IMG/VR virus record: IMGVR_UViG_3300033149_002975 | Span: 1 to 64,000 of that record | From: a virus | Strand: one strand, 5' to 3' | Length of the DNA stretch: 64,000 nucleotides | Part shown: positions 4,090 through 57,760 of the stretch, one piece after another | How positions within the stretch are numbered: the stretch's first letter is position 1 | Layout: each line of letters starts with the position of its first letter | The notes under the pieces: model-generated | What the model saw: only the letters and a program-made list of their open reading frames with translations | The model's database searches: none | Told to the model about the DNA's origin: nothing | Position numbers and translations under genes: made by a program

Positions 4090-4458
4090 ATGGAGATTGA
4101 CAATGAAATGACTAGAGCAACTGATCCAAACGGTGCTGGGAAAGGTGATGATTATCGTCGTGTGAATCCAATTAAATGGAATCGTGGATGGTTACGCCGC
4201 CCAAAATTTGGGTTTAAATGTCCGTGGTGTAATAAATCTGGTGATGAATCAGAAATTAACGAAAATTGTAAATTGTGTGGTGGTGTTGGATACTTGGATA
4301 AAAAATACTGGAAAGTTTGTAAAGTGTGTAAAGGTACGGGTGTTTGTGGGGTGCCGGATTTTATTTCATCAAATGAAATCTGTACTATACATGAATGTGA
4401 AAATTGTGGTGGTATCGGATATATTCAAAAGAATGGTTTATTAAAAAGGAGCCAATAA
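4090..4458 (+). CDS. DnaJ-type CxxC zinc-finger protein
   Basis: The protein has up to 122 residues with four CxxC pairs in order: CPWC, CKLC(GGVGY), CKVC(KGTG) and CENC(GGIGY). The CxxCxGxG spacing is that of the DnaJ central zinc-binding domain, without a J domain. In DnaJ this region binds two zincs and unfolded polypeptide. A small phage protein could act as a chaperone helper or simply as a nucleic-acid or protein adapter. The start may be ATG 4090 or ATG 4108; the latter is better placed after GGAG at 4092-4095. The stop overlaps the next start by one base. Confidence 0.65.
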   Translation: MEIDNEMTRATDPNGAGKGDDYRRVNPIKWNRGWLRRPKFGFKCPWCNKSGDESEINENCKLCGGVGYLDKKYWKVCKVCKGTGVCGVPDFISSNEICTIHECENCGGIGYIQKNGLLKRSQ

Positions 4459-5504
4459 TGCTACAGAAAGGTAAAATCAATATACTGATTGGTAATAGTT
4501 TCGGAAGTGAAGGAAAGGGAAACATTGCAGCATATATCGCAGAGAAATATAAACCGGATATTTGTATTTCACAAAATGGCCCTAACGCCGGTCATTGTTA
4601 TCTTAATGACTCTGGAGAAACAGAAATATTTAAAATGCTACCGGTATCCGGTGTTGTTGCAAAAAATTCAACAATCATCCTTGGATCCGGGTCGGTGATA
4701 GACGTTAAACGCCTCGAAAAGGAAATTGCTGACAATCCCGGTGTTGAAGATAGATTATTTATATCACCAACTGCACCAATAGTTGATGAATATTGTAAAG
4801 AATACGAGAGAAAACATCTACAGTATATTGCATCTACATTTCAGGGGACGGGCGCAGCAATTGGACTCAAAGCGATGCGTTCAGAAAAGATAAAATTAGC
4901 AGCAAATGTCAAAGAACTTGAGAAATATGTAAGAAACGACATACCTGATTGGTTGATCGAGCAATTGGCTGTTGGAAAAACGGCATTGGCCGAAGTTTCA
5001 CAGGGTATACATTTGTCTGTTGATAGTGAATTTTATCCATATTGTACCAGCCGTTCAATAAACGTTGGACAAATGTTTGCTTATCTGGATGTTCCGGTAA
5101 CTTTATTGGGGGATGTAATAGGCATAGCACGTAGTTACCCAATAAGAGTTGGTAATGTGGAAAAGGGACAATCTGGTAAAGTTTATCCAGATAGCAAAGA
5201 ATTATCCTGGGAAGAAATTTCTGAACGTATTGGACGACCCGTAAAAGAATTAACTACGGTCACCAAACGCGTTCGCAGGGTATTTGAATTTTCAAAAATC
5301 GGATTTGAAATGGGCGTTCGCAGAAATGGAATAAATATTTTATTCCTATCATTTGCTGATTATCTGAGGCCGGAAGAGAAAGAAAAAATGAAAAATTATT
5401 TATTTGATTTAAACGTATACACGTTACACGGGACAGAAATTAAAGAAATTTATTTTGTTAATGGTTTTGGTCAATTTGACAAAAATATTGAAAGAATAAA
5501 ATAA
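4458..5504 (+). CDS. purZ: PurZ-like adenylosuccinate synthetase (probable N6-succino-2-amino-dAMP synthase)
   Basis: The protein has 348 residues, shorter than bacterial PurA (about 430) and near the known size of phage PurZ. Seen: a P-loop 'GNSFGSEGKGN' (residues 12-22), 'NGPNAGHC' with the catalytic His at 46, 'STFQGTGAA', 'SQGIHLSVD', and the nucleotide-binding 'TTVTKRVRR' near residues 265-273. In PurA the P-loop reads GDEGKG with a catalytic Asp; here that residue is Ser17. This is the substitution I recall for phage PurZ, which joins Asp to dGMP rather than IMP on the route to 2-amino-dATP (dZTP). It starts with a good GGAG site and is followed by a diphosphohydrolase two genes on. A true PurA with altered chemistry is the alternative. 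Confidence 0.82.
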   Translation: MLQKGKINILIGNSFGSEGKGNIAAYIAEKYKPDICISQNGPNAGHCYLNDSGETEIFKMLPVSGVVAKNSTIILGSGSVIDVKRLEKEIADNPGVEDRLFISPTAPIVDEYCKEYERKHLQYIASTFQGTGAAIGLKAMRSEKIKLAANVKELEKYVRNDIPDWLIEQLAVGKTALAEVSQGIHLSVDSEFYPYCTSRSINVGQMFAYLDVPVTLLGDVIGIARSYPIRVGNVEKGQSGKVYPDSKELSWEEISERIGRPVKELTTVTKRVRRVFEFSKIGFEMGVRRNGINILFLSFADYLRPEEKEKMKNYLFDLNVYTLHGTEIKEIYFVNGFGQFDKNIERIK

Positions 5505-5506
5505 CA

Positions 5507-5737
5507 ATGGAACCAAGTTCAGAACAAAAAGTGGTTGATAATTTATTGTGTGCTTGTAATGGTTTACGATGTAGCGGGATATGTCGTAAAATAAACTTGT
5601 ACAGAAAACGTAAAAATCAAAATATTTGCCCATCTGCATATAAAAAAGGATCAGAATACAAAAAGCCCACAGAAAAAAAGGAAAAACAAATTAGAAATAA
5701 AAAATGGAGGAGGCAGCACGATGAACAAATCAGGTAA
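5507..5737 (+). CDS. Small Cys-rich basic protein
   Basis: This 76-residue product begins two bases after the purZ-like stop and overlaps the next gene by 17 bases. Four to five Cys lie in the N-terminal half ('LLCACNGLRCSGICRK...ICPS') and could bind metal. The C-terminal half is very basic (Lys/Arg-rich). The family is not recognised. The ribosome site is weak, so translational coupling to the preceding gene is likely if the gene is real. Confidence 0.5.
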   Translation: MEPSSEQKVVDNLLCACNGLRCSGICRKINLYRKRKNQNICPSAYKKGSEYKKPTEKKEKQIRNKKWRRQHDEQIR

Positions 5738-6110
5738 ACGTGAAAAATTCAAGACCGGCGCAGTTAGGGATTCCGGGGACAACAAAATTCGTCCAGATGA
5801 AATATCACCATTTGCTACTCTAAGGGTAGCAAAACGAATGCTTGAGGGTGCAAAAACATATGGTGAAGGAAACTGGCAAAAAGGAATGTCATTTAAAAGA
5901 ACACTTGCTTCTCTTGAAAGACACGTTTTAGCCGTAAAATTAGGAATGAAAGATGAAGATCATTTAGCGGCAATTGTTTGTAACGCTAATTTTTTAATAC
6001 ATTATGAAGAAATGATAAAACTCGGATTATTGCCGGAAGAATTAAACGATTTACCGGATTACACAGCACACAATGTAAAAAAACGAAAGGAAAATAACGA
6101 TGAAAAGTAA
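5721..6110 (+). CDS. dATP/dGTP diphosphohydrolase-like protein (DUF5664 family; MazZ candidate)
   Basis: The protein has 129 residues. The core 'GDNKIRPDEISPFATLRVAKRM...GAKTYGEGNWQKGMSFKRTLASLERHVLAVKLGMKDEDHLAAIVCNANFLIHY' follows the DUF5664 pattern: R-x-DEIxP, YG..NW..G, R...SLxRH and the terminal HLAA..xNA segment. By established knowledge this family is annotated as the dATP/dGTP diphosphohydrolase N-terminal domain and is found in Z-DNA phages, where the enzyme lowers dATP and supplies dGMP for PurZ. The family also occurs in phages without PurZ, so the link rests on adjacency. A strong GGAGGAGGC site precedes ATG 5721. Confidence 0.72.
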   Translation: MNKSGKREKFKTGAVRDSGDNKIRPDEISPFATLRVAKRMLEGAKTYGEGNWQKGMSFKRTLASLERHVLAVKLGMKDEDHLAAIVCNANFLIHYEEMIKLGLLPEELNDLPDYTAHNVKKRKENNDEK

Positions 6111-6687
6111 ATATAAATCAAAGTTCCCGATACCACAGTTGACAAGTCTTGATGATATTATTAGATACAAAGATCTGAAACGTGGGATAATTCGTGTATA
6201 CTCGTATATTGATGAATCTTTGGTACATCAGGTATCATTAGAAACTATGGAAATTTTGGAACTGGGTTGCAAGAAAATAACGTTACATATTGCATCACCC
6301 GGTGGTGGAGTGTATTCGTCATTTGCAATTCACGATATATTAAGAAAATTATCTAAGGATGGAATAAAAATCGAAGCTATTGTTGAAGGTTATGCGGCAT
6401 CTGCCGCAGCAGCAATAATTTTACAGGCTGCTGATAAGAGAATGTGCTACCAATTAACCAGATTTTTGTTACACGAAGTAAGAACGTGGAGTGATGGATT
6501 TCAGAGGAATTCGGATTTGAAAGATGAAGCAAAAGAAGTAGGTATTATTGATGAAATGGTAAATAAAATATTAGCTGATAAATGCAATAAAAGTATTAAA
6601 GAAATTCGACAATTAGTTAATAGGAAAGAAGTTTGGATGTCGGCAAAAGAAGCTTTGAAATTCGGATTGATAGACAAAATTATATGA
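6100..6687 (+). CDS. ClpP-like serine protease
   Basis: This 195-residue protein has the ClpP/crotonase fold signature: 'LHIASPGGGVYSSFAIHDIL' (oxyanion-forming region), nucleophile Ser101 in 'GYAASAAAA', and His125 in 'FLLHEV'. The end 'EVWMSAKEALKFGLIDKII' matches the ClpP C-terminal signature. The usual acidic third residue is not obvious at its expected place. Phages use ClpP-like enzymes as head-maturation proteases, but a gp21-type protease is encoded at 55-58 kb, so a different role (processing of another protein, or host interference) is possible. It overlaps the upstream gene by 11 bases. Confidence 0.82.
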   Translation: MKSKYKSKFPIPQLTSLDDIIRYKDLKRGIIRVYSYIDESLVHQVSLETMEILELGCKKITLHIASPGGGVYSSFAIHDILRKLSKDGIKIEAIVEGYAASAAAAIILQAADKRMCYQLTRFLLHEVRTWSDGFQRNSDLKDEAKEVGIIDEMVNKILADKCNKSIKEIRQLVNRKEVWMSAKEALKFGLIDKII

Positions 6688-7502
6688 CAGAGGTACCAAT
6701 AAATCAAATTTTGTGTGGTAATTGTAATGAATTATTGGACACAATACAATCAGAAAGTATTGATTTAACTATAACTTCACCACCATACGGGAATCTAAGA
6801 GATTACCACGGCTACGTATTAAATACCAATGATTTATCAATGCAACTTTTACGAATAACAAAACCTGGAGGAATCGTAGTATGGGTTGTTGGGGATGAAA
6901 CTATTAATGGTTCCGAATCCGGGGAAAGTTTTAAGCAAGCATTACAGTTTATACAACATGGCTGGTTGTTACATGACACCATGATATATGCTAAAAGTTC
7001 ATTTTCTTATCCATCAACAAAGGAATCAATGAGGTACCATCAACAATTTGAATTTATGTTTATATTCAGTAAAGGAAAACCAAAAACTTTTAATCCAATA
7101 ATGGATAAATTGAATGCTTATAAACAAGGTGGTGGTGATTGCAAAAGGCAAAAAGACGGTACATTAAAACGTGGTAAACGAAGTGGCACACCGTTAAATA
7201 AATATGGGATGCGTAACAATATTTGGACCTATGTTACTGGTGGTGGACATCATTCAGACTTTAAAAGATCGTCGGAACACCCAGCAACTTTTCCAGACCA
7301 ATTGGCAATTGATCACATAAAAAGTTGGAGTAACAAGGGTGATTTAATATTAGATCCAATGTGTGGTAGTGGAACAACTTGCGCTATGGCATATAAATTG
7401 GGGCGTAATTATATAGGAATCGATATTTCACCGGATTATTGTCAATTGGCAAAAGACAAAATTAAATATGAAGAAAAAATTAAAGCGGGAGAAATTTTCT
7501 AA
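6684..7502 (+). CDS. DNA methyltransferase, SPPY type (N4-cytosine or N6-adenine)
   Basis: This 272-residue protein has a beta-class motif order. Catalytic motif IV 'TSPPYGNLRDY' comes near the N-terminus, then a variable target-recognition region, then 'DLILDPMCGSGTT' (motif I, SAM binding) and 'GRNYIGIDIS' (motif II) near the C-terminus. It transfers a methyl group to an exocyclic amino group of a base in DNA. ATG 6684 is chosen because it forms an ATGA overlap with the ClpP stop. No restriction endonuclease partner is recognised next to it, so it is more likely protective or regulatory. Confidence 0.87.
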   Translation: MTEVPINQILCGNCNELLDTIQSESIDLTITSPPYGNLRDYHGYVLNTNDLSMQLLRITKPGGIVVWVVGDETINGSESGESFKQALQFIQHGWLLHDTMIYAKSSFSYPSTKESMRYHQQFEFMFIFSKGKPKTFNPIMDKLNAYKQGGGDCKRQKDGTLKRGKRSGTPLNKYGMRNNIWTYVTGGGHHSDFKRSSEHPATFPDQLAIDHIKSWSNKGDLILDPMCGSGTTCAMAYKLGRNYIGIDISPDYCQLAKDKIKYEEKIKAGEIF

Positions 7503-8152
7503 TGTCAGCAATTAAAACACCAGTATATTATACAAAAACAAAAGAAGGCGGACACGACGTATTTTTAATTTACGAACCCAAAAAAGAGGAACTAAAAAGT
7601 GGCTATACCGCCAAATGTTGGAAAGAAGATGAAGCAAAAGCCATTTGTGATTCAATAAATGGTAATGGGGTTACAAATAAGGAACAAAAATATCGAGAAT
7701 TCGTAATGAAACTTCAGCAGCAAAGGGCTGAAGCCGGTGTTGAAACCAAAGATATGCTTAGCAGTAAATTAACTTTTTTGCTTGCACACGCAGCGATGGG
7801 TATGGTAACGGAAGCCGCAGAAATATTGGATATTATCAAAAAGCATTTGGTATACCGCCGTCCCCTCGATTTCACGAAAATTAAAGACGAGTGCGGTGAC
7901 AGTTTGTTTTATCTAACAATGGCTATTATTGAATGTGGTTCAAACTACAATGAAATAATTGATATGAATATGGCCAAATTGAACGCCAGATACAAAGGCA
8001 GATATACGCACGAACAAGCTAACAGCAGAAATCTAGAAGAGGAGAAAAAAGCTCAAATGAAAGTCGTGAGTCCGGCATTGTCTGGCGGTATTACAGAAGA
8101 AGAAGCTTTAAAAGCTAAATATTTTGACAAGGATAAAGGTTGGATAACATAA
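7502..8152 (+). CDS. MazG-like nucleotide pyrophosphohydrolase
   Basis: The protein has 216 residues. After a ~60-residue N-terminal extension, the all-alpha MazG domain (about 63-165) shows the metal-binding pairs E104-A-A-E107 ('VTEAAEILDIIKKH') and E130-C-G-D133 ('KIKDECGDSLFYL'), the ExxE...ExxD layout of the family. These enzymes hydrolyse (d)NTPs to (d)NMP plus pyrophosphate. In Z-DNA phages a MazG-like enzyme (MazZ) makes dGMP from dGTP for PurZ, so this is a second MazZ candidate besides the 5721 gene. The start overlaps the methyltransferase stop by one base. The C-terminal ~50 residues are of unknown role. Confidence 0.8.
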   Translation: MSAIKTPVYYTKTKEGGHDVFLIYEPKKEELKSGYTAKCWKEDEAKAICDSINGNGVTNKEQKYREFVMKLQQQRAEAGVETKDMLSSKLTFLLAHAAMGMVTEAAEILDIIKKHLVYRRPLDFTKIKDECGDSLFYLTMAIIECGSNYNEIIDMNMAKLNARYKGRYTHEQANSRNLEEEKKAQMKVVSPALSGGITEEEALKAKYFDKDKGWIT

Positions 8153-8922
8153 ACGCTAGACAAATAACCAGATTATTGAGAAATAAACATCGCGAAGATG
8201 TATTTGTTTCACAGTGCAAAGATGGTCCTACAGGATATGGCTTGGCACAAATAGATGCTTGGGTTATGAAAAAGTCATGGGCACACCCTTTAATGATCGG
8301 ATACGAAATAAAAATTAACAGACAAGATTTTTTACGCGACAACAAATGGCCCAATTATTTAGAAATGTGCAACGAATTGGTATTCATTTGTCCGTGGGAT
8401 ATAATACACGTTAATGAAGTGCCGGACAGTTGTGGTTTAATGTGGGTCTCAAAAACTGGGACGAGAATTACCACGAAGAAAAAAGCACCATACAGGGAGA
8501 TTGAAGAACCCGTAAACCTTTTAAAATATTTGTTAATGGCCAGAACAACAATCGACCCGGAGTATAAAAGCGGCAATGGCTACACAAAAGAATTTTGGGA
8601 AAATTGGTTGGCCAACAAAAAGAAAAATTGGTATTTTGGGCACAACCTTGGAAAATCACTTCGTGAAGAAATAGAAAAGAAAATCTTAGAAGTTGATTCT
8701 GAAAACGCACGTTTACGAAATCTCGTAATTGGTTATGAAAAAATAGCCACAGTAATTAAAGAATTGGGATTTGATTCAAAGAATTTTTCTACATATCAAA
8801 TATCAAATGCACTTCGGGATTTGAAACGGGTAATTCCACAAGATCTGGTACGGACAATCAGTAATTTGAAAGATTGTTTGGTAAGAACGGAAGAAAATTT
8901 TAAAGAACACGGAATTGAATGA
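8140..8922 (+). CDS. MmcB-like PD-(D/E)xK nuclease-fold protein
   Basis: The protein has 260 residues with a TTG start at 8140, supported by AAGGA at 8129-8133 and overlap with the mazG end. The segment 'AQIDAWVMKKSW...GYEIKINRQDFLRDNKWPNYLEMCNELVFICP' has the D-x(n)-E-x-K core of the PD-(D/E)xK fold and resembles the MmcB DNA-repair family. The C-terminal half is helical and partly coiled-coil (from about residue 160). Function is inferred to be DNA cleavage or repair; catalysis cannot be confirmed. Confidence 0.55.
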   Translation: MDNINARQITRLLRNKHREDVFVSQCKDGPTGYGLAQIDAWVMKKSWAHPLMIGYEIKINRQDFLRDNKWPNYLEMCNELVFICPWDIIHVNEVPDSCGLMWVSKTGTRITTKKKAPYREIEEPVNLLKYLLMARTTIDPEYKSGNGYTKEFWENWLANKKKNWYFGHNLGKSLREEIEKKILEVDSENARLRNLVIGYEKIATVIKELGFDSKNFSTYQISNALRDLKRVIPQDLVRTISNLKDCLVRTEENFKEHGIE

Positions 8923-9146
8923 TTAATAAAATTATCATCATATCATTGTTAGCAGCAACTTCTGAAATATACGGTTTGTATCTGGTTGGAAATAAAAATA
9001 AATTTGGATTTATTCTTAATATAATATGTTGTTTGTTGTGGATTATAACATCAATAATTAGTAAAGTATACGGCCTGTCAATAAGTGCCGGAGTAATGTT
9101 ATTTCTAAACATAAGAAATTATAAAAAATGGTCTAATGGGGTCTAA
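8919..9146 (+). CDS. Small membrane protein with three hydrophobic segments
   Basis: The protein has 75 residues, starting with an ATGA overlap at the previous stop. Hydrophobic stretches at about residues 3-22, 30-47 and 50-66 suggest two or three membrane helices with a short basic tail ('RNYKKW'). It vaguely resembles part of a PnuC-type transporter ('LYLVGNKNKFGF'), but is far too short to be one. Its role is unknown. Confidence 0.55.
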   Translation: MINKIIIISLLAATSEIYGLYLVGNKNKFGFILNIICCLLWIITSIISKVYGLSISAGVMLFLNIRNYKKWSNGV

Positions 9147-9148
9147 AT

Positions 9149-9829
9149 ATGAATACCGACACGTATTGGTTAATTATTCTTCAATTACTTATAGTTTGCG
9201 TTGAAATATTCACCCATTGGCGTGTAACATCTTCCAGACCTATAAGAAGAAAACACGGGTGTATGGCCGGATTGACTGTCCAATTCTTATGGTTGGTAGT
9301 TTTTGTTTGTGTCAAAACTTGGTATCTATTGCCTTTATTGGTTATTAATGGGTATATATGGCATAGGGGATACAAAAAGGCCAAATGGATCTCTGAACAT
9401 AATAGACGATCTGGCTACAGAATAAAGTTGTATATGAGTCATCCAATAAGGGGATCAAAAATTGATGAAGCGTCTTTGGAAATTCAGCTATCGAATTCAC
9501 AAAGGGCAAAAGATGCATCCTTTGAAATTATGACAAAAATTGAAGCTTTGGATATCTACACACCGGGAAATGCTGAGGATTTTGTTGGTCTAACATATTC
9601 CGAGGGTCTATTGACCGATAAACAAATATTAGATATTGATTGTAAAATACTAGATAAATGCGATGGTTTAATAGTTTATGATTTTGATAAATCAAAAGGT
9701 GTTGAAACCGAAGTTGCGTACGCAAAAAAACACAATATGCCGATTTTGAGATTTGAAAAATTGAATTCAAAAACCATAGATAGAATACAGAAATTCGTAA
9801 ACGATTTAATGTATATTAAGAAAGGATAA
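9149..9829 (+). CDS. Membrane-anchored nucleoside deoxyribosyltransferase-like protein (DUF4406 type)
   Basis: The protein has 226 residues. The first ~85 contain hydrophobic segments (about 6-22, 42-58 and 60-74) predicted to be membrane-spanning, then a basic linker. Residues ~92-220 are a nucleoside 2-deoxyribosyltransferase-like domain: 'KLYMSHPIRG' opening motif, then 'ILDKCDGLIVYDFDKSKGVETEVAYAKKHNMPIL', with the Asp and Glu typical of the active site. Soluble members exchange or hydrolyse the base-sugar bond of deoxynucleosides. Joining it to membrane helices is unusual. It lies two bases after another membrane gene. Confidence 0.62.
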   Translation: MNTDTYWLIILQLLIVCVEIFTHWRVTSSRPIRRKHGCMAGLTVQFLWLVVFVCVKTWYLLPLLVINGYIWHRGYKKAKWISEHNRRSGYRIKLYMSHPIRGSKIDEASLEIQLSNSQRAKDASFEIMTKIEALDIYTPGNAEDFVGLTYSEGLLTDKQILDIDCKILDKCDGLIVYDFDKSKGVETEVAYAKKHNMPILRFEKLNSKTIDRIQKFVNDLMYIKKG

Positions 9830-11978: not shown

Positions 11979-12281
11979 ATGAGAATAACAAAAAATAATT
12001 ACAAATACCCGATTTTGGGTTTCATCTTCGAGTTTATCACAACATTTTGTGTATACTCGTGGATAATCTTTAAAATAACAATGAAAATTTCCTGGTTCAT
12101 CATTAAATGGACGTTCTTGATTTCCACGTGTATTCTTGGGGCATTTTTCGCTGCAAGTGCCGTTTACAATAGAATAATGGAAAATCAAGCAAGGCGTAAC
12201 ATACTTTCGGAAATGAACCGGCAAATATTACATGGAACATTCAACAGTGAATCAGCAAAACAATTCATGAGGATGAATTAA
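11979..12281 (+). CDS. Small membrane protein
   Basis: The protein has 100 residues with two long hydrophobic segments (about 10-32 and 36-62, the latter ending 'GAFFAASAVYNRI') followed by a polar helical tail. The ribosome site is AAAAGGAAAAAA. Holin-like or membrane-associated functions are possible, but nothing specific is seen. Confidence 0.55.
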   Translation: MRITKNNYKYPILGFIFEFITTFCVYSWIIFKITMKISWFIIKWTFLISTCILGAFFAASAVYNRIMENQARRNILSEMNRQILHGTFNSESAKQFMRMN

Positions 12282-12282
12282 A

Positions 12283-12597
12283 ATGAAAAATAACAGATGT
12301 GGACTAATTGACCAGCCGACAGATGACGGGCGATGCGAAGTTAAAGTGTTAGACAGCAAAGGGTGGCATACACATAGATGTCCATTTAGGGCCAAAGTCA
12401 CCGTTGACGGTGTCCACTACTGTGGCAATCACGACCCGCTCAGAAGAGCAAAAAAACAAGAAGAAAAAAACGAGAGATGGAGAGAAAAGAAAAAAAAGCG
12501 TGAATATGAAATTTACGCAACCTTGTTTTGTAAAAAACAAAATTTAACTCTCAAAGATTTAATGAAAAAGATAGAAGAGTACGAAAATGCTAAATGA
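12283..12597 (+). CDS. Cys/His-containing small protein
   Basis: The protein has 104 residues. The N-terminal half has C6, C18, H29/H31, C33 and 'HYCGNHDP', spacing compatible with a zinc site. The middle is a highly charged Lys/Glu/Arg helix and the end is another helix. It starts one base after the previous stop. The family is not recognised. Confidence 0.55.
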   Translation: MKNNRCGLIDQPTDDGRCEVKVLDSKGWHTHRCPFRAKVTVDGVHYCGNHDPLRRAKKQEEKNERWREKKKKREYEIYATLFCKKQNLTLKDLMKKIEEYENAK

Positions 12598-12856
12598 CAA
12601 AGACAAACAAGAAATACAAAAATTAATAAACAAGTGCGACACCGCCGATGAAGTAATGTTTATTAACAATTTGTGCAAAATTAAATTTGATGTAATAGCC
12701 CTTGCAGCAACCGCATCATTCTACCCCGGCCTGAAAGTTTATTGGGGGAATGAATTAGAGGGTGTTGTAGAAAGCGTTGGTACAAAAAACGTAAAAGTCA
12801 ATGTGAATGGTGTGATGTGGAGGGTTGCAGCAACACTTTTGAGGACAGAAAAATGA
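12587..12856 (+). CDS. Hypothetical 89-residue protein with SH3/KOW-like C-terminus
   Basis: It overlaps the preceding gene by 11 bases. An N-terminal helical part is followed by 'PGLKVYWGNELEGVVESVGTKNVKVNVNG', a compact beta pattern of the SH3/KOW kind. No function can be assigned. Confidence 0.5.
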   Translation: MLNDKDKQEIQKLINKCDTADEVMFINNLCKIKFDVIALAATASFYPGLKVYWGNELEGVVESVGTKNVKVNVNGVMWRVAATLLRTEK

Positions 12857-13038
12857 ATTCAGAATTGACATATGAAGATGTAGTAGATGTTTTAGAATAT
12901 CTACCGGAAAGCAAGAAGGACGATAATCTACTAATACATTATATCACGCTGTTGGTTAATACATTTGGTAGATCGCAGGATTATCGTCCAATTTCGGGTA
13001 CCACACAAGTGAGCAAAAATAAAAGGGGACAAGAATGA
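12853..13038 (+). CDS. Hypothetical 61-residue protein
   Basis: ATG 12853 makes an ATGA overlap with the previous stop, which supports this start over an in-frame one at 12817. The product is short, acidic and helical, with no recognised motif. Confidence 0.45.
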   Translation: MNSELTYEDVVDVLEYLPESKKDDNLLIHYITLLVNTFGRSQDYRPISGTTQVSKNKRGQE

Positions 13039-27250: not shown

Positions 27251-28951
27251 TTATTCCATACTTATAGATTCAACATCTACGTCGTATAATTTTGCTATTT
27301 GATTAAAAGTCGTTACTATATTACCATCTTCATCCTGTTGATATCTGACATATATACTAGAAGTCGGGGACGGATTAATATCCAACAATATTTCACCGGT
27401 TTCGTAATCTATTGTTCCGGATATGGTATATGGATCAGACGCAGAAAATGTTCCGGTCCCATCACCATTGTCTGTATCGGTTAGTATATAAGAACCGTCA
27501 ACAAATAATCTTACCGTACCAGGTTTAATTGGTAATGCACCCAACACTATACCATAGTCATACGAAGAATTATAATCGTCATCCAATTCTTTTTTTATTT
27601 CTAAAACCATATTAACATAAGCTATATTTTCCAAATCGTCTATGGCCGCTATTATATTGCTGTATTTAATCATATCCCCCAATTTTGTGGTGTCCCCAAG
27701 TATAAATTGATTAGATACTGCTAATTCGGCATCATCTTGCGCATCCGACATAGAATACCCGGTTGAAACTTTTAAATTTAAAACTGCAATGATATCCAAT
27801 AACTCCGGTTCAACAAATTCATATTTTACGGTAATCATTGATTTATCATAAATATGATCGGAAAGTGCACTTTTGAATGTATCATCCGGCAAATCCCAAT
27901 TTTGAAGAATCACACACATTTTAACTTTATTAAGCATAGACTGAACAACCGAAACTCCATTAGCTAATGCTTCCTCGTTTTCTCCCCAAACATTGGCATC
28001 GGCAACACCCGGATAATTTTCCAAAATTGTGATAAAATCATCCCTTGATACGGCCCTATCGCCGGTTTTAAAAACCCTTGGTGCTTCATACCTTATTTCT
28101 TCTATATCTTCTTCGTCATCTCCACCTAAAAATGAAGAACTATTGGTAACTGTAACAGTAACTGGTGAACCGTCTTCATCGTATATCGTAGAATTTAAAT
28201 TTGTTATTAAACCGGTATTTGTTACATTTCCATCAAGACCTGCAGATTTTATATACGTTATAACTATCAGTGATCCGGATGTTGGGATTAAACCATTAAT
28301 GCCATCACCAAAAACTATTGATACATTTCCATCAATTTCGTCTATAACTTTATAATGCATTGAATCACTATCACTGTTTATAAATGAATCAACTTTTGTC
28401 CATAAATCCCCATCAATAACTACTCTTATTGAACTCTCCGAATTTTCAACTTCTTTGCTGTTTATCAGATACTCTTGATTGGTCGCACCATTTGATGAAA
28501 TTTCCAATTGTGCCAATTCTCCCTGAATGGAACTCACAATAACTGAAGTTTGTCCTTTTCCAATAACTGCATCTTCATTGGTTAAATACTCAACACCGGA
28601 TGCAGATTTACACGATGTATATTTTGGAATGTAAATATTTTTGTCAGACGGCGAAGCTATACTAAACGTTAAATTACCGGTAGCAGACGCTTTTCTTTTT
28701 GGTCTATATCCTATTAAAGCAACCAAATTCTTAACACTTGATAATAACTTAGCCGTTGGTAAATATGATTCCGTAGCCCTTCTTTCAGTATAATAATTTC
28801 CATTGGTTAATATAAATGCCAGCAATTCTATCAACGTTTCACCGGTCCCAGAAACACCAATGTCTTTCCAGGAATCACGAAGTTTCAACCTGTTTCTCAA
28901 ATCTAATACTATCGACTCGAAATCAACATTTGTATAATTAATTCCCGACAT
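27251..28951 (-). CDS. Baseplate wedge protein, J/gp6-like
   Basis: The protein has 566 residues. 'SGTGETLIELLAFILTNGNYYTERRATESYLPTA' near the start and 'RVFKTGDRAVSRDDFITILENYPGVADANVWG' in the middle are hallmark segments of the baseplate_J family. 'KVSTGYSMSDAQDDAELAVSNQF' matches its C-terminal part. It builds the wedge ring around the hub. The C-terminal ~90 residues ('GTVRLFVDGSYIL...') are an extra beta domain. It abuts the gp25-like gene, the standard gene order. Confidence 0.87.
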   Translation of the reverse strand: MSGINYTNVDFESIVLDLRNRLKLRDSWKDIGVSGTGETLIELLAFILTNGNYYTERRATESYLPTAKLLSSVKNLVALIGYRPKRKASATGNLTFSIASPSDKNIYIPKYTSCKSASGVEYLTNEDAVIGKGQTSVIVSSIQGELAQLEISSNGATNQEYLINSKEVENSESSIRVVIDGDLWTKVDSFINSDSDSMHYKVIDEIDGNVSIVFGDGINGLIPTSGSLIVITYIKSAGLDGNVTNTGLITNLNSTIYDEDGSPVTVTVTNSSSFLGGDDEEDIEEIRYEAPRVFKTGDRAVSRDDFITILENYPGVADANVWGENEEALANGVSVVQSMLNKVKMCVILQNWDLPDDTFKSALSDHIYDKSMITVKYEFVEPELLDIIAVLNLKVSTGYSMSDAQDDAELAVSNQFILGDTTKLGDMIKYSNIIAAIDDLENIAYVNMVLEIKKELDDDYNSSYDYGIVLGALPIKPGTVRLFVDGSYILTDTDNGDGTGTFSASDPYTISGTIDYETGEILLDINPSPTSSIYVRYQQDEDGNIVTTFNQIAKLYDVDVESISME

Positions 28952-34602: not shown

Positions 34603-35778
34603 TTATTTTCTCTTGATATTAGTGGCCGGTATTAATGTATTAGGAACATCAGTATTTACACCAGCTCTGGTTAACAATAAATTGGTCATATATGAAGAAC
34701 CAAAAACATGTACAACTCTTTTAATCATCCATAAACCACTGTGTTGATAGAGGAATAATTTTCCCCTGACCAACGATTCACTAAATATCAACCTTATTAT
34801 GTCACCTGGTGATACGTTTTCCAATCCCCAAGTGGATATCCACATATTAATAAATCCGTTAATTCTTCTATTAAAACTCCCCCCGTTCTTGCCATGAAAA
34901 TTAGAAGTAAATAAATTGTTCCTTCCTAATTTGTGAATATATACACTATCATTTCGATTATCTTTATCAACAAGAAAATTTTTGGCCAACGACGGGCAGT
35001 CATTAATAACTATGGAATCATCAACGTATTCCCCGGAATTATAATTAAAATATCCAAATGACTGGGATCTTGCACCCAAATCCGATATTAACGGTGAATT
35101 ATCAAAAATTTTGTAATCAACAACCGGGTAAAAGTTCTCATACGGTTTTGGTCCCACGATAAAATTATATCTGGGTTCTGATGATAAAATTTCACTCAGA
35201 CTTTTAAATACCAATATTGGTTTGCCCTTAACATTTTTTATAAAACAATAATAACACAACTCACCATTTTTGCCTTCTATATTATCAATCAAATGTCTAA
35301 ATAATTTGGCATCGGTCCATCTAGTTTGGAGTATTGTTTTATCATAATTTAATGATTGGCCAATTTCAGTATTTAATATTTCTAAATCTTCGGAGGCTAT
35401 TAATTCTATGTTCTTTTTTATATTACCGGTGTGTGCCCTTCCATATGATTTGGTTAATAAATTTTTTACACTTAAAATTCCCTCGATAATATATATCTTA
35501 TTGGAATTTGGCTTTCTCCTTTTAACCATAAAATTCATTATATTTAAATTATTAAGATTCTCACCCCTTGAAAATTCAATTTTTATATTATTAGAATTTT
35601 TATCATATGGTATTATATCACCAAGAAGACCTGTGGCATCTTTAATCGATATTTTAAAAGTAGGAAGAAGTCTGTCAACATCCATTGTTATCGAGACTTC
35701 TTCCATCATCTGGGGCGATACGTAAGCTCCCACATCTCCCATACTTATATTAAGATAATAATTGCCTGTTACTAACAC
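34603..35778 (-). CDS. Baseplate hub protein (gpD/gp27-like)
   Basis: The protein has 391 residues with a GTG start at 35778 (ATG at codon 13 is an alternative). It is placed directly before the OB-fold spike gene as in P2 D-V and T4 27-5. Seen: 'EVSITMDVDRLLPTFKISIKDATGLLGD', a tube-like beta segment, and 'GDIIRLIFSESLVRGKLFLYQHSGLWMIKRVVH' near the C-terminus. The call rests on order and overall layout more than on a single motif. Confidence 0.65.
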   Translation of the reverse strand: MLVTGNYYLNISMGDVGAYVSPQMMEEVSITMDVDRLLPTFKISIKDATGLLGDIIPYDKNSNNIKIEFSRGENLNNLNIMNFMVKRRKPNSNKIYIIEGILSVKNLLTKSYGRAHTGNIKKNIELIASEDLEILNTEIGQSLNYDKTILQTRWTDAKLFRHLIDNIEGKNGELCYYCFIKNVKGKPILVFKSLSEILSSEPRYNFIVGPKPYENFYPVVDYKIFDNSPLISDLGARSQSFGYFNYNSGEYVDDSIVINDCPSLAKNFLVDKDNRNDSVYIHKLGRNNLFTSNFHGKNGGSFNRRINGFINMWISTWGLENVSPGDIIRLIFSESLVRGKLFLYQHSGLWMIKRVVHVFGSSYMTNLLLTRAGVNTDVPNTLIPATNIKRK

Positions 35779-35782
35779 TGAA

Positions 35783-36088
35783 TTATATAATCCTATATTT
35801 TTCTTGAAAACTATAAATATCTAATTTGTTTGGTACCACCAATATCTGTCCATTGATTAAATCCAACAATGGATTATCCACACCATTTACCAACATCAAT
35901 ATCCACCAGAATTCTACAGAACCATAACATTTGTAGCTTATTATATCAGGTCGCATGAGATCGGAATTTGTTACCCTATAATATTGTGGCTCATAAATCA
36001 TTGGAAAATCCGATAAAGGATTATGTAAAAAATCCAATTCGGTATTGTTATCAACTACAACTTTTGTATAAAAATTTGATCTATTCAT
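35783..36088 (-). CDS. Baseplate wedge protein, gp53-like
   Basis: The protein has 101 residues. 'RPDIISYKCYGSVEFWWILMLVNGVDNPLLDLINGQILVVPNK' matches the pattern of T4 gp53 and of LysM-like tail proteins (D-x-I-xYK-YG...WWI....N.I.(D/N)P...GQ.L.IP). It probably joins wedge and hub. It lies four bases from the hub gene. Confidence 0.68.
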   Translation of the reverse strand: MNRSNFYTKVVVDNNTELDFLHNPLSDFPMIYEPQYYRVTNSDLMRPDIISYKCYGSVEFWWILMLVNGVDNPLLDLINGQILVVPNKLDIYSFQEKYRII

Positions 36089-36101
36089 ATTTGTACAACA
36101 A

Positions 36102-39286: not shown

Positions 39287-39314
39287 TCTATCACCCCTTT
39301 AAATATATTATTAA

Positions 39315-39923
39315 TTAACCGCCCAACAGATTTTTTGCAGCATTTATCACACCACCAACAGCATTAAATGCAGCCGATCTAATAGATCCTATTAAACTAC
39401 TCACCTCCACATAATCAACAAATAGATCAACATTCCATTTTAAAACCGAATTTTCGGAATACGATAAAGATAACGGTGGACAATTTTTGGGAAAACAACC
39501 GTGCAATACAAATTTTGCCGACTGTATACCAGATCTGTCAAATAAAAACACATAGACATCACGTTTGTAATAACTTTTTGGATAAAAATATCCATCATCA
39601 TCAACAATTAATCTTCTCCAGTCACGAAAATATTCATATACTGAATTATCCACCGGCATGATAAACGACATCGGAATTTGTTCAATATCTCTTAATCCGG
39701 AATAAAATCTTCGTTCAGATCCGTATCTGGTAACAGAAATTTCCGCTATTGAATAATCACCAAATTTGATATCCTGGCAATACTGGGATATCAAAATTCC
39801 AGGAACATCACTAACACCATCTGGAAGTATTATTTGCCAGTTATATGTACGTTGTAATGTCCATAATTTAGTTATTAGATTTCCTGCCACACCGGGCAAA
39901 TCAAACCCTAATTTCTGAGGCAT
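39315..39923 (-). CDS. Second tail tube-like protein
   Basis: The protein has 202 residues. 'YNWQIILPDGVSDVPGILISQYCQDIKFGDYSIAEISVTRYGSERRF' and 'SYSENSVLKWNVDLFVDYVEV' show the tube-protein beta fold (as in gp19/gp54-type proteins). It overlaps the tube gene by one base and may be a tube end or initiator protein. The C-terminal tail is Ala/Gly-rich. Confidence 0.6.
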   Translation of the reverse strand: MPQKLGFDLPGVAGNLITKLWTLQRTYNWQIILPDGVSDVPGILISQYCQDIKFGDYSIAEISVTRYGSERRFYSGLRDIEQIPMSFIMPVDNSVYEYFRDWRRLIVDDDGYFYPKSYYKRDVYVFLFDRSGIQSAKFVLHGCFPKNCPPLSLSYSENSVLKWNVDLFVDYVEVSSLIGSIRSAAFNAVGGVINAAKNLLGG

Positions 39924-40455: not shown

Positions 40456-42105
40456 TTATTTACCAACACCCCTTGAAATTATTTCTTCAAATGAGGCACC
40501 ACTTGAAGTAATAACGGTTTGTAATTGAATGTATTCTGCGGCCCTTGAAGGTTTGACAAAAACATCCACCCTCAATTCATTTTGATCAATAGTTACCCCT
40601 GTGTTGTTTGTCTCATCGCAAACAACGTTGAATCCTTTATCATTACCCTCCGTTTGAAAAGCGCCCTGTGCTGACAAATCATCCAAATAACTGTTCAATA
40701 AAGCCTCGACTCTGAACCTCGTAGTTTCATCATTTGGTTCGAAAACAAATGGTCTAAGAGAAATTGCCATTGCTTTTTCAATAACTATTAACAATCTGCG
40801 GACATTTATTCTGTCAAGAGCGGATGCTTTCTTTTGTAATGTTTTCTGTCCCCAAATGGCAAAACCTTCACCAACAAATGTCTGGAGTGGGTTAATCCCA
40901 GCGGCGTATAATACGTCCCTTTCACCTTCCGTAAATATCAAATTACCATTTGGTCCGGTAATGGCCAATACATCAAGAAGTCCCCTATTTAATCCAGCCG
41001 GAGCCGTCCACGGTTTACCAGCAAAATCATTGTACGCCATTTGTGCAGCAACATAACCAGATGAAGGAACATCAACTATTATATCATTGTATACATCATA
41101 AATTTGACACCACCCGGCGGCCAAACAACCATAACTTGAATTAATGTTCATTGAATTTCTAAATATCACCATATCGGCTACAGTGTTCAATGAAGTCCAC
41201 GGAATATCCAAAACCGCAATACAATCGGCTCTTGTTTCCGCAACCGTTTTTATCTTTGATTGAACACCGGCACCCGTTTCTCCACCATTAATCAAAATTC
41301 TGACATCAACTTTGTCCGGATTGATAAATTCATCCCAACCAGCAATCAATTCAGACGGCGATATTTCAGAGCCATCAGAACCCCCATCAAAATCTAATCT
41401 TACCGGTGAATCTTCTACAACCGCCGATGCCTTCGGTAAAACAGTATCTGCCAAAGCCGAATCGGCGACCGTTATATATTTTGATACACCATTAATTTTA
41501 TCCTCAAGATATAGCTGCTTACCAAAACCATCAATCTTTTTCTTTCGTGAAACTTTCCAAGATTCAACCATTAACCAATTACCGTCGTCATCTTGCCAAT
41601 AAACATTGATTTTAAATGTATATTGATCGGTTGGAACTTCGTCGGATCCGTCTTTCACTTCGGTAATCGTTATTCCTATCCTATTATTCCAAATCCCCTG
41701 GTTGGCCCCGAAAATCTGAATAGCAATCTCAGTATCCATCCCTGAATCAGCATTAAAAGCATTGGACAATCTGCCGGTAGCGAATGCTGCGTTGTTTTCC
41801 GATGAATCAGATTTCATCACATTAACACCACCATACAACGCAGAATTGTGAACCCTTAAGCAATATAATGATTTGCCCTTTGCCAAATACGCCATTGCAG
41901 CATAATGAAAATAATGACCAGACGATGGATCCGGTTTTCCATATTCATTAATAAAATCCTGAACATTGGTCATTAACATTATATCATTGGTTGACCCTTT
42001 AGCTGAATAACCAACTAAGGCGGCAGAAGATGTTGCCACATTTGCGACAATATTTGAAACATCAGTTTCTTTTGCATAAACACCTGGCGACAAAAAAATA
42101 CTCAT
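40456..42105 (-). CDS. Tail sheath protein
   Basis: The protein has 549 residues. It opens 'FLSPGVYAKETDVSNIV' (the sheath N-terminal arm), contains 'ALVGYSAKGSTND' and 'GKSLYCLRVHN', and ends with 'RLLIVIEKAMAISLRPFVFEPNDETTRFRVEALLNSYLDDLSAQGAFQ' (the conserved sheath C-terminal domain that links subunits). It contracts to drive the tube through the host envelope. It has a good GGAGAAATG site and no sign of truncation. Confidence 0.95.
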   Translation of the reverse strand: MSIFLSPGVYAKETDVSNIVANVATSSAALVGYSAKGSTNDIMLMTNVQDFINEYGKPDPSSGHYFHYAAMAYLAKGKSLYCLRVHNSALYGGVNVMKSDSSENNAAFATGRLSNAFNADSGMDTEIAIQIFGANQGIWNNRIGITITEVKDGSDEVPTDQYTFKINVYWQDDDGNWLMVESWKVSRKKKIDGFGKQLYLEDKINGVSKYITVADSALADTVLPKASAVVEDSPVRLDFDGGSDGSEISPSELIAGWDEFINPDKVDVRILINGGETGAGVQSKIKTVAETRADCIAVLDIPWTSLNTVADMVIFRNSMNINSSYGCLAAGWCQIYDVYNDIIVDVPSSGYVAAQMAYNDFAGKPWTAPAGLNRGLLDVLAITGPNGNLIFTEGERDVLYAAGINPLQTFVGEGFAIWGQKTLQKKASALDRINVRRLLIVIEKAMAISLRPFVFEPNDETTRFRVEALLNSYLDDLSAQGAFQTEGNDKGFNVVCDETNNTGVTIDQNELRVDVFVKPSRAAEYIQLQTVITSSGASFEEIISRGVGK

Positions 42106-50086: not shown

Positions 50087-50106
50087 TTTTATCCCTTTAG
50101 GAGACC

Positions 50107-55420: not shown

Positions 55421-57760
55421 TTAAGATTTTAATCCTAATACATTGTTAATAATTGTTTTCTGACGTTTTCTAACTGGGTCGATTGGTTCTTTTCGCTTTT
55501 CAATTAATACCGTTTGCACCGGATTGGCATGAAGTGCACGCCTACGCGAAACATCGCGGCATTCGTCTAAAGCTTTATCGACCTCTTCAATTGTCTGACA
55601 ACTTTCAAGAAGTGCTCGTTGGTTGTCAGAAATTTGTAGCCCATTTGATTCCTTTGTTAAATATTCTTTAATTATTCTTGCTCTAACTTTTTTTTCAGTT
55701 TGCTTTATTTTTTCATCAAATTTTTTGTTGGCCTCCGTCATTTCCCTATCATGCTTTTTCTTTAATCCTGCGGCCTTTTGTTTTAAATATGAAGTTACTT
55801 TTTTGATTTCTGCTTTTGCATTATTAAGTTTCTTCTCCAATATGTTTATCTTTGCTGTTAATTCATTGCTACGTTTCATTAAATCCTGTGCTGATTTTGC
55901 CTTCTCTTCAAGTTTTAACCTTAAAGCCAAAACATCATCAGATTCTGCATTCCTCATTTCTTTAAGCTTTTTGGTAAGAATTCGAAATTCCAAATCTTTA
56001 TCAGCTATGGTATTCAAAAATTCGACTGCCAAATCTCTTTCAGCGCGTGAGGTGGCTTCTTTAATTTGTAATTCCATGATATCTTTACCAATGGGTCTAA
56101 CTATTTCCGGTTTCGATACAGACATTACCCCCTCTGGAACTGTTTCACTGAAAGAAGTTTTCAATATTCCGGCAATTACCTTCGCCATTTCAACAGCTTT
56201 TTCTTTTGTTGGAAAACTAAATGTCAAGTAAGCAGCACCATTTGCTGGCTTCCTATAAACACCGTATTTATCATTCAAAAAACCGGTCTCATCAACAAAT
56301 AATATGTCTTTATCCTCATTAATTTTTGACTCTTCAAGAACTATTATTTCATATTGTGATTCATCATACCAGTCATCAATACCGTCAATTTTTACGGCGG
56401 TCGTTCCTTCGGGTTCCGTTGTACTAACATCCACAACTTTTCCAAATGGAACAATTGTCGTGTTACCGTCTTTATCTTTTATTTGTACAATATTCCCAAC
56501 TTTATAACGTTCATTTAACATTTCATTGATATAATCAATAATTTGTTCCACCGATTCATTCCTTTGGTGTGCCGGTTTTACGGCACGTTTCTTTCCCAAT
56601 GCACCCATACAACGCTTGTAGGCTTCTTTTTGCGTCATTTCTCCAGATTTGATTTTTGCCGCATAACCTGTAGCACATTTGTGGAAAGCTTTCGTGTGGA
56701 CCCCTTTACCTTTTGGGGGTTTCAAACCTTTGCTGGTGTACAATTTTCTAATCTCTTCTGTTTCATTAACTTTTGATTCTTTCATATCTTCCGAATCCAA
56801 ATCAAATTCCTCCTCAAAATCTTCGTCCGACAATTCGATATCTTCACCGGACGTATCATCGTCAACGTCCCCAGTTTCCGTTTGCGTCCCATCATCAGGT
56901 ATAGCTATTTCATCAGGTGCTCCTTGTGGGGGCGTTTCCACGGTAATTTCAACCGTTGAATCGGGTTGATCCGGTAACACATTAACCGATTTTACATCCC
57001 CGGTAGCAACAATTTTTTGTGTATTTGGGTTCACTCCCACCGTTATTTGTTCTTCATTGGTCCTTGATTCAGACGATATTCTAATATTACCTTCAACTAT
57101 TTTACATTCCCCTTTATCATTACACTCTATAGATTCCAAAAGTTTCATTGCAAATCGTTTCTCTTCCGGCTTTATTTTCTCGTTCTCAATTTCTTTGCGG
57201 ACGGCAGACATTATGTTTCTTTTTATGTCTATTGGGAAAGCACCAAATGTTGAAGGGTCTGCCGTAAAATCTGTAACTTTAAAATTATACGCTTCAGGAA
57301 TTACATGATAACATTTATTGCCGGACTCATCAATTTCTTCTCTCAAATCACCCTCAGCCCTCGTTGACACACCAATATTACATTTGGCAGCCAACAATGC
57401 GTCAATAATTCTGCCCTGCGGGGTATCCAGAACATCCATCTCAGTATATACTTTACTCTCGTCCATCCACATTTTAACAATTACGTGAGAAATTAATGGA
57501 GTTTTGGATTGAATGCCGTCAGGGTGCTCTGCGTGCCCAAATAACGAACGATTCTTTATTGAATCCATCAATTCTTTGTTTTCAAAGAGCCTTTCCCACA
57601 CATCGCGTCCGTATATTCGGTGATTGGCATTAATTTTCCCTATATTACAAATGGGATAGACCACACGGCATAAAACACGATCCGGCAATTTGTCGGTTTT
57701 CACCAATCTCCCGCCTGTGGTAATCGATTCATCCAATTTTTGGTTTTTTAATATTCTCAT
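55421..57760 (-). CDS. Prohead protease (gp21-like) fused to internal modules and scaffold-like coiled coil
   Basis: The protein has 779 residues. N-terminal ~190 residues are a gp21-type protease: His79 in 'FGHAEHPDG', Ser132 in 'NIGVSTRAEG', then 'DFTADPSTFGAF'. A peptide KLDE|S ends at residue 11. The middle holds an acidic region, 'KESKVNE', a small Cys module, an SH3-like module and 'ESKINE'. Residues ~570-740 are a long coiled-coil like scaffold gp22. Likely it builds the head core and then cuts itself and the core proteins. T4 encodes these as separate genes. Confidence 0.8.
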   Translation of the reverse strand: MRILKNQKLDESITTGGRLVKTDKLPDRVLCRVVYPICNIGKINANHRIYGRDVWERLFENKELMDSIKNRSLFGHAEHPDGIQSKTPLISHVIVKMWMDESKVYTEMDVLDTPQGRIIDALLAAKCNIGVSTRAEGDLREEIDESGNKCYHVIPEAYNFKVTDFTADPSTFGAFPIDIKRNIMSAVRKEIENEKIKPEEKRFAMKLLESIECNDKGECKIVEGNIRISSESRTNEEQITVGVNPNTQKIVATGDVKSVNVLPDQPDSTVEITVETPPQGAPDEIAIPDDGTQTETGDVDDDTSGEDIELSDEDFEEEFDLDSEDMKESKVNETEEIRKLYTSKGLKPPKGKGVHTKAFHKCATGYAAKIKSGEMTQKEAYKRCMGALGKKRAVKPAHQRNESVEQIIDYINEMLNERYKVGNIVQIKDKDGNTTIVPFGKVVDVSTTEPEGTTAVKIDGIDDWYDESQYEIIVLEESKINEDKDILFVDETGFLNDKYGVYRKPANGAAYLTFSFPTKEKAVEMAKVIAGILKTSFSETVPEGVMSVSKPEIVRPIGKDIMELQIKEATSRAERDLAVEFLNTIADKDLEFRILTKKLKEMRNAESDDVLALRLKLEEKAKSAQDLMKRSNELTAKINILEKKLNNAKAEIKKVTSYLKQKAAGLKKKHDREMTEANKKFDEKIKQTEKKVRARIIKEYLTKESNGLQISDNQRALLESCQTIEEVDKALDECRDVSRRRALHANPVQTVLIEKRKEPIDPVRKRQKTIINNVLGLKS

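What the first reader, a model, noticed from the sequence alone, without database searches (positions are those of the whole stretch)
4458..8152. PurZ-like, DUF5664 and MazG genes together: possible 2-aminoadenine (Z) genome in a myovirus
The 348-residue adenylosuccinate-synthetase homologue has Ser17 in the P-loop (GSEGKG) where PurA has a catalytic Asp, while the catalytic His and the TTVT-R-RR nucleotide-binding loop are kept. As I recall the literature, this Asp-to-Ser change marks phage PurZ. Within 3.7 kb come a DUF5664 dATP/dGTP diphosphohydrolase and a MazG, the kind of enzyme (MazZ) that feeds dGMP to PurZ. Described Z phages are mainly siphoviruses; a contractile-tailed phage with a T4-type head would widen the range. 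No DatZ (HD dATPase) or DpoZ polymerase is seen here, so either they lie outside the window or the pathway is a variant.
Basis: partly seen in the sequence, partly recalled or inferred. Interest (0 to 1): 0.9.

Follow-up and report, generated by a model that had tools for sequence, protein, structure and literature searches.

The report
PurZ in a contractile-tailed phage
A contractile-tailed phage carries a true but deeply diverged version of the enzyme that starts making the unusual DNA base 2-aminoadenine, yet lacks the usual partner enzymes, so whether its DNA really contains that base has to be measured.

Summary
Window 4458-5504 encodes a 348-aa adenylosuccinate-synthetase homologue with Ser17 in GSEGKG; DUF5664, MazG-like and contractile-tail genes are all real. 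In a 76-row tree the protein falls inside the phage PurZ clade with phiVC8, S-2L and a SH-Ab-like phage (100/96), apart from true PurA and from PurZ0. With one other lineage (58% identity) it forms a deep branch. It keeps Asp at the donor-base position where PurZ has Asn/Gln, which predicts GTP as donor.

The record has a 114-bp end repeat, bridged by a second contig, so the genome is complete (102.7 kb) and absences count. It has no DatZ. Its only family A polymerase is a UDG-PolA fusion that groups with purZ-less relatives and keeps the helix-O Tyr that characterised DpoZ enzymes replace by Phe. No PurA/PurZ was found in 16 related records, while counterparts of its DUF5664 and NDT-like genes occur there without purZ. 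The cluster is therefore weaker evidence for Z-DNA than proposed.

Most likely this is a working PurZ of a new lineage, with dATP lowered, if at all, by DUF5664/MazG and an NDT-type hydrolase instead of DatZ. Partial substitution is as plausible as complete. Ten other PurZ contigs encode tail sheaths.

The parts
4458..5504 (+). PurZ (2-amino-adenylosuccinate synthetase homologue, 348 aa; Ser17, His46, TTVT loop, Asp301 at the donor-base position)
5507..5737 (+). small ORF (76 aa) between purZ and DUF5664; a counterpart lies in purZ-less relative G039 (5e-14)
5721..6110 (+). DUF5664 / dGTP_diPhyd_N protein (129 aa), candidate dATP/dGTP diphosphohydrolase
6100..6687 (+). ClpP-like protease in the same gene run (role unknown)
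6633..7502 (+). N6/N4 DNA methyltransferase (PF01555), same gene run
7502..8152 (+). MazG-like protein (216 aa) with ExxE and ExxxD motifs; not matched by MazZ-1 or MazZ-2 profiles
8140..8922 (+). MmcB-like protein, same gene run
9149..9829 (+). membrane-segment (by eye) + NDT-superfamily protein (226 aa), candidate deoxynucleotide N-glycosidase; Tyr, Asp and Glu of the NDT triad align
40456..42105 (-). tail sheath protein
39315..39923 (-). tail tube protein
27251..28951 (-). Baseplate_J / baseplate wedge protein
55421..57760 (-). S77 prohead protease (head maturation)

Best explanation
The gene encodes a genuine PurZ of a new, deep lineage in a complete contractile-tailed phage. Inferred mechanism: PurZ joins aspartate to dGMP, with GTP as the likely phosphate donor (Asp301), giving dSMP; host PurB and kinases finish dZTP. 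dGMP would come from DUF5664 and/or MazG acting on dGTP. Without DatZ, dATP would be lowered by the DUF5664/MazG step (dATP to dAMP), with the NDT-type enzyme cleaving dAMP to adenine. The unselective UDG-PolA would insert dZTP or dATP opposite T according to the pool, so the DNA would be partly, perhaps largely, Z. Shown from sequence: membership in the PurZ clade, conserved catalytic residues, contractile tail, complete genome, absence of DatZ and of DpoZ features. Inferred: every enzymatic step, and Z in the DNA.
For: PDB search: phiVC8 PurZ 4.8e-51, S-2L PurZ 2.1e-36, archaeal PurA 3.4e-25, E. coli PurA 6e-15. Careful tree: PurZ clade of 44 rows 100/96, window + L016 100/100, 12 PurA apart at 100/100. 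30 of 32 positions conserved in both PurA and PurZ are kept, and PurZ-type Ser17, Thr266, Phe276, Ser279, Arg199, Ile229 and the inserted Tyr243 are present. Donor site S298..D301 with the Asp of PurA and PurZ0. purZ and DUF5664 are near neighbours on one strand. NDT fold: best VIA-align Z 12.7 to an NDT and about 10 to DNPH1, with triad residues aligned. The nearest relative, G001, has purZ directly after a PolA with the helix-O Phe, plus DUF5664 and an IMPDH/GMP-reductase-like gene. S-2L shows that a non-selective polymerase can serve a Z genome (PMC8342488, section read).
Against: No DatZ, no DpoZ-like polymerase and no profile-recognised MazZ in a complete genome. purZ is absent from 16 related records, and DUF5664-like and NDT-like genes occur there without it, so nothing ties them to purZ here. 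The genome encodes a D12 N6-adenine methyltransferase, odd if all adenine is replaced. The lineage lies outside the 13-row subclade that holds phiVC8 and S-2L, the enzymes whose activity is documented in papers read here. The NDT protein has Arg where DmtZ has the Asp12 needed for dAMP.
Confidence: 0.5

Rival explanations
1. PurZ is active on dGMP but the phage does not build a Z genome. A solo accessory purZ yields low-level dZTP or shifts purine pools (spending dGMP, aspartate and GTP), giving trace Z that may only blunt restriction or a host nuclease.
For: purZ lies in a block without counterpart at this place in relatives; no DatZ, no DpoZ; incomplete Z-clusters in E. coli gave lower substitution than the full set (PMC8342488); a D12 adenine methyltransferase is kept.
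Against: PurZ loci without a DatZ gene in the flanks held are common (30 of 52 loci with adequate flanks), 15 of them with an NDT or dUTPase gene instead, so absence of DatZ need not mean absence of Z.
Confidence: 0.33
2. The protein works as an ordinary adenylosuccinate synthetase on IMP, raising adenine nucleotides during infection.
For: PF00709 homology; the Asp of the donor site is shared with PurA.
Against: The aspartate that is catalytic in PurA is Ser; the tree excludes it from PurA at 100/100; the closest solved structures are PurZ.
Confidence: 0.07
3. It makes a different succinylated or aminated purine, as the function of its Ser-type cellular paralogues is unknown.
For: Ser at this position also occurs in cellular paralogues from many phyla, so Ser alone does not prove dGMP use.
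Against: It carries the PurZ-type insertion with Tyr243 and F276/S279, which most cellular paralogues lack, and falls in the PurZ clade.
Confidence: 0.1

Closest known systems
phiVC8-type PurZ (PDB 6fko/6fm1) and S-2L PurZ (7odx)
   Same: Same clade, Ser for catalytic Asp, same dGMP-pocket residues, 39.7% identity over 86% to phiVC8
   Different: G-S-E and Asp301 instead of D-S-T and Asn/Gln, predicting GTP rather than (d)ATP as donor; no datZ-mazZ neighbours; contractile-tailed phage
PurZ0 of Arthrobacter phage Wayne and Gordonia phage Ghobes
   Same: G-S-E motif and donor-site Asp; DUF5664 (Wayne) and NDT-type genes in the genome; no DatZ
   Different: Different clade; no dUTPase-type DutZ found, though PMC12884076 reports dutZ in all 98 PurZ0 genomes
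PurZ of IMG/VR contig G001 (L016/L017)
   Same: 58% identity, same donor-site Asp, DUF5664 in the genome
   Different: purZ directly follows an intein-bearing (by eye) UDG-PolA with the helix-O Phe; IMPDH/GMP-reductase-like and ribonucleotide-reductase-like genes (by eye); largely unrelated genome
DmtZ / DNPH1 / MilB (NDT superfamily)
   Same: Fold and Tyr-Asp/Asn-Glu triad align with window 9149-9829
   Different: Arg instead of DmtZ Asp12; membrane-like N-terminal part; also present in purZ-less relative G035
DpoZ DNA polymerases
   Same: Family A polymerase with 3'-5' exonuclease domain
   Different: Window polymerase keeps helix-O Tyr, has a UDG domain, and groups with polymerases of purZ-less relatives

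Membership tests
PurZ | Asp-to-Ser change in the P-loop of a PurA homologue | tested here: met
   Ser17
PurZ | Clusters with characterised PurZ and not with PurA | tested here: met
   100/96 clade with phiVC8, S-2L and DMU1; PurA apart 100/100; position inside the clade unresolved (89/68)
PurZ | Catalytic residues shared by PurA and PurZ kept | tested here: met
   30 of 32 positions; the two changes are S for Q and C for T
PurZ | Asn/Gln at the donor-base position for (d)ATP (typical, not defining: Asp in 10 of 80 viral relatives) | tested here: not met
   Asp301; role of Q308/N297 from PMC8342488 section 7
PurZ | Makes dSMP from dGMP | not testable with these tools
   needs enzyme assay
PurZ0 | Clusters with Wayne, Ghobes and Spocter | tested here: not met
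PurZ0 | DutZ in the genome | tested here: not met
   DutZ/DmtZ profile matched only the NDT-like ORF at 0.0039 in the complete genome
Z-cluster (datZ-mazZ-purZ) | DatZ | tested here: not met
   none in own genome; positive control rang in 5 of 14 records
Z-cluster (datZ-mazZ-purZ) | MazZ | tested here: inconclusive
   MazG-like protein present with catalytic acidic motifs, but no MazZ-1 or MazZ-2 profile match
DpoZ | Helix-O Tyr replaced by Phe | tested here: not met
   Tyr kept; Phe as the only mutation shared by both DpoZ clades from PMC8599892 section 13
DpoZ | Groups with a DpoZ clade | tested here: not met
   Groups with 3 polymerases of related phages at 100; no purZ was found in those 3 records (G045, G039, L231)
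DUF5664 | Profile match over the curated cut-off | tested here: met
   PF18909, 65.5 bits against 27
DmtZ | NDT fold and triad | tested here: met
DmtZ | Asp12 (dAMP recognition) | tested here: not met
   Arg in the window protein
Contractile-tailed phage | Sheath, tube and baseplate genes | tested here: met
Z-DNA phage | 2-aminoadenine in virion DNA | not testable with these tools
   needs LC-MS

The most novel reading that the evidence does not exclude
Contractile-tailed phages, including jumbo-size ones, run a different Z route: PurZ without DatZ, with dATP removed by dNTP diphosphohydrolases plus an NDT-type dAMP hydrolase (in the large phages paired with a deoxyribose-phosphate-aldolase-fold protein). 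The window lineage is a GTP-using PurZ acquired on its own by a phage group that otherwise lacks purZ, giving a phage with a mixed or full Z genome copied by an unselective UDG-PolA.
Probability: 0.3. Interest if true: 0.85.

Novelty: new variant of a known kind. Interest (0 to 1): 0.6.

Why it matters
Papers read here describe Z-DNA phages as siphoviruses and podoviruses with DatZ or DutZ/DmtZ and usually a Z-selective polymerase. A complete contractile-tailed genome with PurZ but none of these asks how much of the Z machinery is really needed, and whether a GTP-using PurZ without dATP removal gives mixed A/Z DNA. The wider set found here (PurZ in large sheath-bearing phages, an NDT gene in place of DatZ) widens the host and genome-size range to be tested and offers new enzymes for making Z-DNA.

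Tried and rejected
Scan with the single window protein found no viral relative; the alignment query found 529, the best 80 kept. The idea that the window lineage is the earliest branch of PurZ came from the quick tree and is not supported by the careful one. The idea that the PolA is a DpoZ was rejected. The idea that DUF5664 beside purZ marks a Z system was rejected as sufficient evidence, because relative G045 has a DUF5664-like gene in the same slot without purZ. Exclusivity of DatZ against NDT/dUTPase genes near purZ looks strong by count (0 of 52 loci have both, Fisher 3.7e-5) but is not significant once kinship is allowed for (5 independent pairs, median p 0.5). The MazZ1 and DUF5664 profiles share fused training rows, so they do not separate these two domains. 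DNPH1-type identity of the window NDT protein: sequence search of the PDB gave nothing and Foldseek only E 3.5e-3. The protein beside purZ in large phages that proved to have the aldolase fold has no Pfam or PDB sequence match, only a fold match, and its Schiff-base Lys is Arg in 10 of 10 rows (that this Lys is the Schiff-base residue is recalled).
Full report
Observation. The window is bases 1-64000 of a 102,811-bp virus record. ORF 4458-5504 (+) encodes 348 aa with GSEGKG at residues 16-21, NAGH at 43-46 and ELTTVTKRVRR. Pfam gives Adenylsucc_synt (1.7e-35) and PHROGs '2-aminooxy adenylosuccinate synthetase' (8.8e-59); 5721-6110 is DUF5664 (PF18909) and 7502-8152 is MazG-like. The tail is contractile: sheath, tube, Baseplate_J; the head protease is of the S77 family.

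Is the genome complete? The first 114 bases of the record equal the last 114, and a second contig of 26,352 bp, identical where compared, runs across the join. The genome is therefore about 102.7 kb and complete, either circularly permuted or circular in assembly. Absences can be read as real within search sensitivity.

PurA, PurZ or PurZ0? By sequence the nearest solved structures are phiVC8 PurZ (4.8e-51; entry 6fko, named phiVC8 PurZ from recall and from PMC8342488's mention of 6fm1) and S-2L PurZ (2.1e-36), then archaeal PurA (3.4e-25), 7vf6 (1.3e-19; that this entry is PurZ0 is recalled) and E. coli PurA (6e-15). Among 217 phage records with a match the best is phiVC8 at 39.7% and none reaches 60%. 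In IMG/VR 529 candidate stretches encode relatives; of the best 80 only L016 and L017 (58%) are close. A 76-row IQ-TREE tree puts the window protein in a 44-row clade with phiVC8, S-2L, DMU1, OH and BpsS-140 (100/96), with L016 as its sister (100/100); 12 true PurA are apart (100/100), and PurZ0 rows group with cellular Ser-type paralogues (87/94). Its place inside the PurZ clade is unresolved (89/68). A larger quick tree agrees on clade membership. For the trees, near-identical viral and cellular rows were dropped first and the cellular rows were cut to 40, then to a chosen 20.

Active site. Of 32 positions conserved in both PurA and PurZ the window protein keeps 30. It has the PurZ-type residues Ser17, Thr266, Phe276, Ser279, Arg199, Ile229 and the inserted Tyr243. 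It differs at several PurZ-typical places, among them Gly12 for Asp, Glu18 for Thr, and Asp301 where S-2L has Gln308 and phiVC8 Asn297, residues that contact the adenine of the donor and conflict with guanine (PMC8342488 section 7). Asp at this place is found in 12 of 12 PurA rows, 3 of 3 PurZ0, 70 of 80 cellular paralogues and 10 of 80 viral relatives. I therefore predict GTP as donor. That this Asp (Asp333 in E. coli numbering) reads GTP in PurA, and that PurZ0 uses GTP, are recalled, not taken from a call; a sentence in PMC12884076 gives the order ATP, GTP for PurZ0, PurZ. Some of the Asp-bearing viral relatives (L035, L075, L077, L081, L086) do have DatZ and MazZ neighbours, so the Asp does not by itself mark a solo PurZ.

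The rest of the Z machinery. A DatZ alignment found nothing in 20 records, 17 of them PurZ-bearing, including this genome; as a positive control it rang in 5 of 14 further PurZ records. Profiles built from PurZ-linked loci found no DatZ, MazZ-1, MazZ-2, DutZ or PurB in the genome; the best scores were chance-level, and the DutZ/DmtZ profile touched only the NDT-like ORF at 0.0039. The only family A polymerase (genome 89703-92270, outside the window) is a UDG-exonuclease-PolA fusion. It groups at 100 with the polymerases of three related phage records in which no purZ was found and keeps the helix-O Tyr. The Phe there is the only mutation shared by both DpoZ clades (PMC8599892 section 13). Among 53 other PolA rows from PurZ- or PurZ-like-bearing loci, 32 have Phe, 10 Thr/Ser/Asn and 11 Tyr; so Tyr alone does not exclude a Z phage.

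Is the cluster tied to purZ? Sheath relatives (61-69% identity for most) include contigs of 90, 84 and 68 kb (G045, G039, G035) that share structural or replication genes with this genome. PF00709 is absent from all 16 related records searched, which may be fragments; one of them, G030, is a fragment of this same phage that does not reach purZ, and G033, identical in its sheath, is likely another. In G045 the slot beside the sigma-factor gene holds a DUF5664-like gene and no purZ, and G035 has the same membrane-segment + NDT protein (2e-40) without purZ. So DUF5664 and NDT-like genes occur in this phage group independently of purZ, and purZ looks like a lineage-specific acquisition. By contrast the sister contig G001 has purZ starting directly after an intein-bearing (by eye) UDG-PolA with the helix-O Phe, and also carries DUF5664, an IMPDH/GMP-reductase-like gene and a ribonucleotide-reductase-like gene (both by eye). 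G001 shares only about ten matches with this genome, purZ being by far the strongest, which points to horizontal transfer of purZ.

The NDT-type gene. Window 9149-9829 ends in a domain whose model (pLDDT 79, two-row alignment) aligns best with a protein named nucleoside 2-deoxyribosyltransferase in the PDB sequence table (7m5h, Z 12.7; name) and then other NDTs and DNPH1 (Z about 10). The triad Tyr, Asp and Glu aligns with DmtZ Tyr6, Asn77 and Glu103, but DmtZ Asp12, whose Ala and Arg mutants lost dAMP hydrolysis (PMC12884076), is Arg. A dNMP hydrolase is plausible; dAMP specificity is not shown.

Wider pattern. Eleven of 17 PurZ-bearing records searched have a sheath gene, so PurZ in contractile-tailed phages is not confined to this genome. 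In 16 loci of a large-phage PurZ clade, 9 carry an NDT-like gene (PF05014; profile match to MilB CMP N-glycosidase 1.5e-6) directly followed by a protein with the deoxyribose-phosphate-aldolase fold (Foldseek 2e-11), on the purZ strand and upstream of it; its Schiff-base Lys is Arg in 10 of 10 rows. In 52 non-redundant loci with at least 3 kb on each side (of 68 non-redundant, of 80), 22 have DatZ alone, 15 an NDT or dUTPase gene alone, none both and 15 neither (Fisher 3.7e-5); allowing for kinship there are only 5 independent pairs and no significance.

Mechanism and verdict. The best reading is an active PurZ with GTP as donor, fed with dGMP by DUF5664/MazG, with dATP lowered by the same enzymes and perhaps by the NDT protein, and Z inserted by an unselective PolA. 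S-2L is a precedent for an unselective polymerase, and partial gene sets gave less Z in E. coli than the full set (PMC8342488). Full, mixed and trace Z are all open. A D12 adenine methyltransferase in the genome argues mildly against complete replacement.

Literature. Seen: PMC12884076 (abstract, passages, sections 22-25 and the first part of Results), PMC8342488 (outline, sections 6, 7, 8, 11), PMC8599892 (passages, section 13), PMC8515928 (passages). PMC8342488 states that all ten complete phages with both datZ and purZ were sipho- or podoviruses. Searches listed no report of PurZ or Z-DNA in a contractile-tailed phage by title or abstract start; the library lacks most subscription journals, and only the papers named here were opened.

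Noticed in passing
L027, L034, L038, L045, L056, L064, L068, L069, L080: upstream of purZ: In large PurZ phages an NDT-like gene is directly followed by a protein with the deoxyribose-5-phosphate-aldolase fold whose Schiff-base Lys is Arg in all rows (9 of 16 loci have the pair). Possibly a dAMP or dR5P sink or sensor in place of DatZ.
   Followed up: partly
L096-L175 (genome contigs): A widespread family of bacterial and archaeal PurA paralogues with Ser (3 rows: Gly) for the catalytic Asp, 290 stretches found with a Ser-biased pattern; some are over 500 aa long, so carry a further part. Function unknown; most group with PurZ0.
   Followed up: partly
L017/G001 35419-39935: Intein-bearing (by eye) UDG-PolA with helix-O Phe directly followed by purZ; the genome also has DUF5664 and IMPDH/GMP-reductase-like genes. 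A candidate new DpoZ type.
   Followed up: partly
L006, L035, L073, L077, L081, L086, L095 polymerases: PurZ-linked PolA of the Ochrobactrum-phage-OH group replace the helix-O Tyr by Thr or Ser rather than Phe.
   Followed up: partly
genome 89703-92270 (L004:6703-9270): Sole family A polymerase carries an N-terminal UDG domain (PF03167, 2.8e-21) and has close counterparts in purZ-less relatives.
   Followed up: partly
L004:641-1426, L004:2576-3418, window 6633-7502: Three DNA methyltransferases, one of the D12 N6-adenine class.
   Followed up: no
L004:17471-18031: Secreted-looking protein with a PEP-CTERM-like end (by eye), hinting at an exosortase-bearing host.
   Followed up: no
L003:708-2081, 8672-9220, 12154-12993: Several pentapeptide-repeat proteins (by eye), all matching one homologue in G045.
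   Followed up: no
G045 49500-57900: Slot corresponding to the purZ region holds two radical-SAM-like genes and a PLP-enzyme-like gene (by eye) instead.
   Followed up: no
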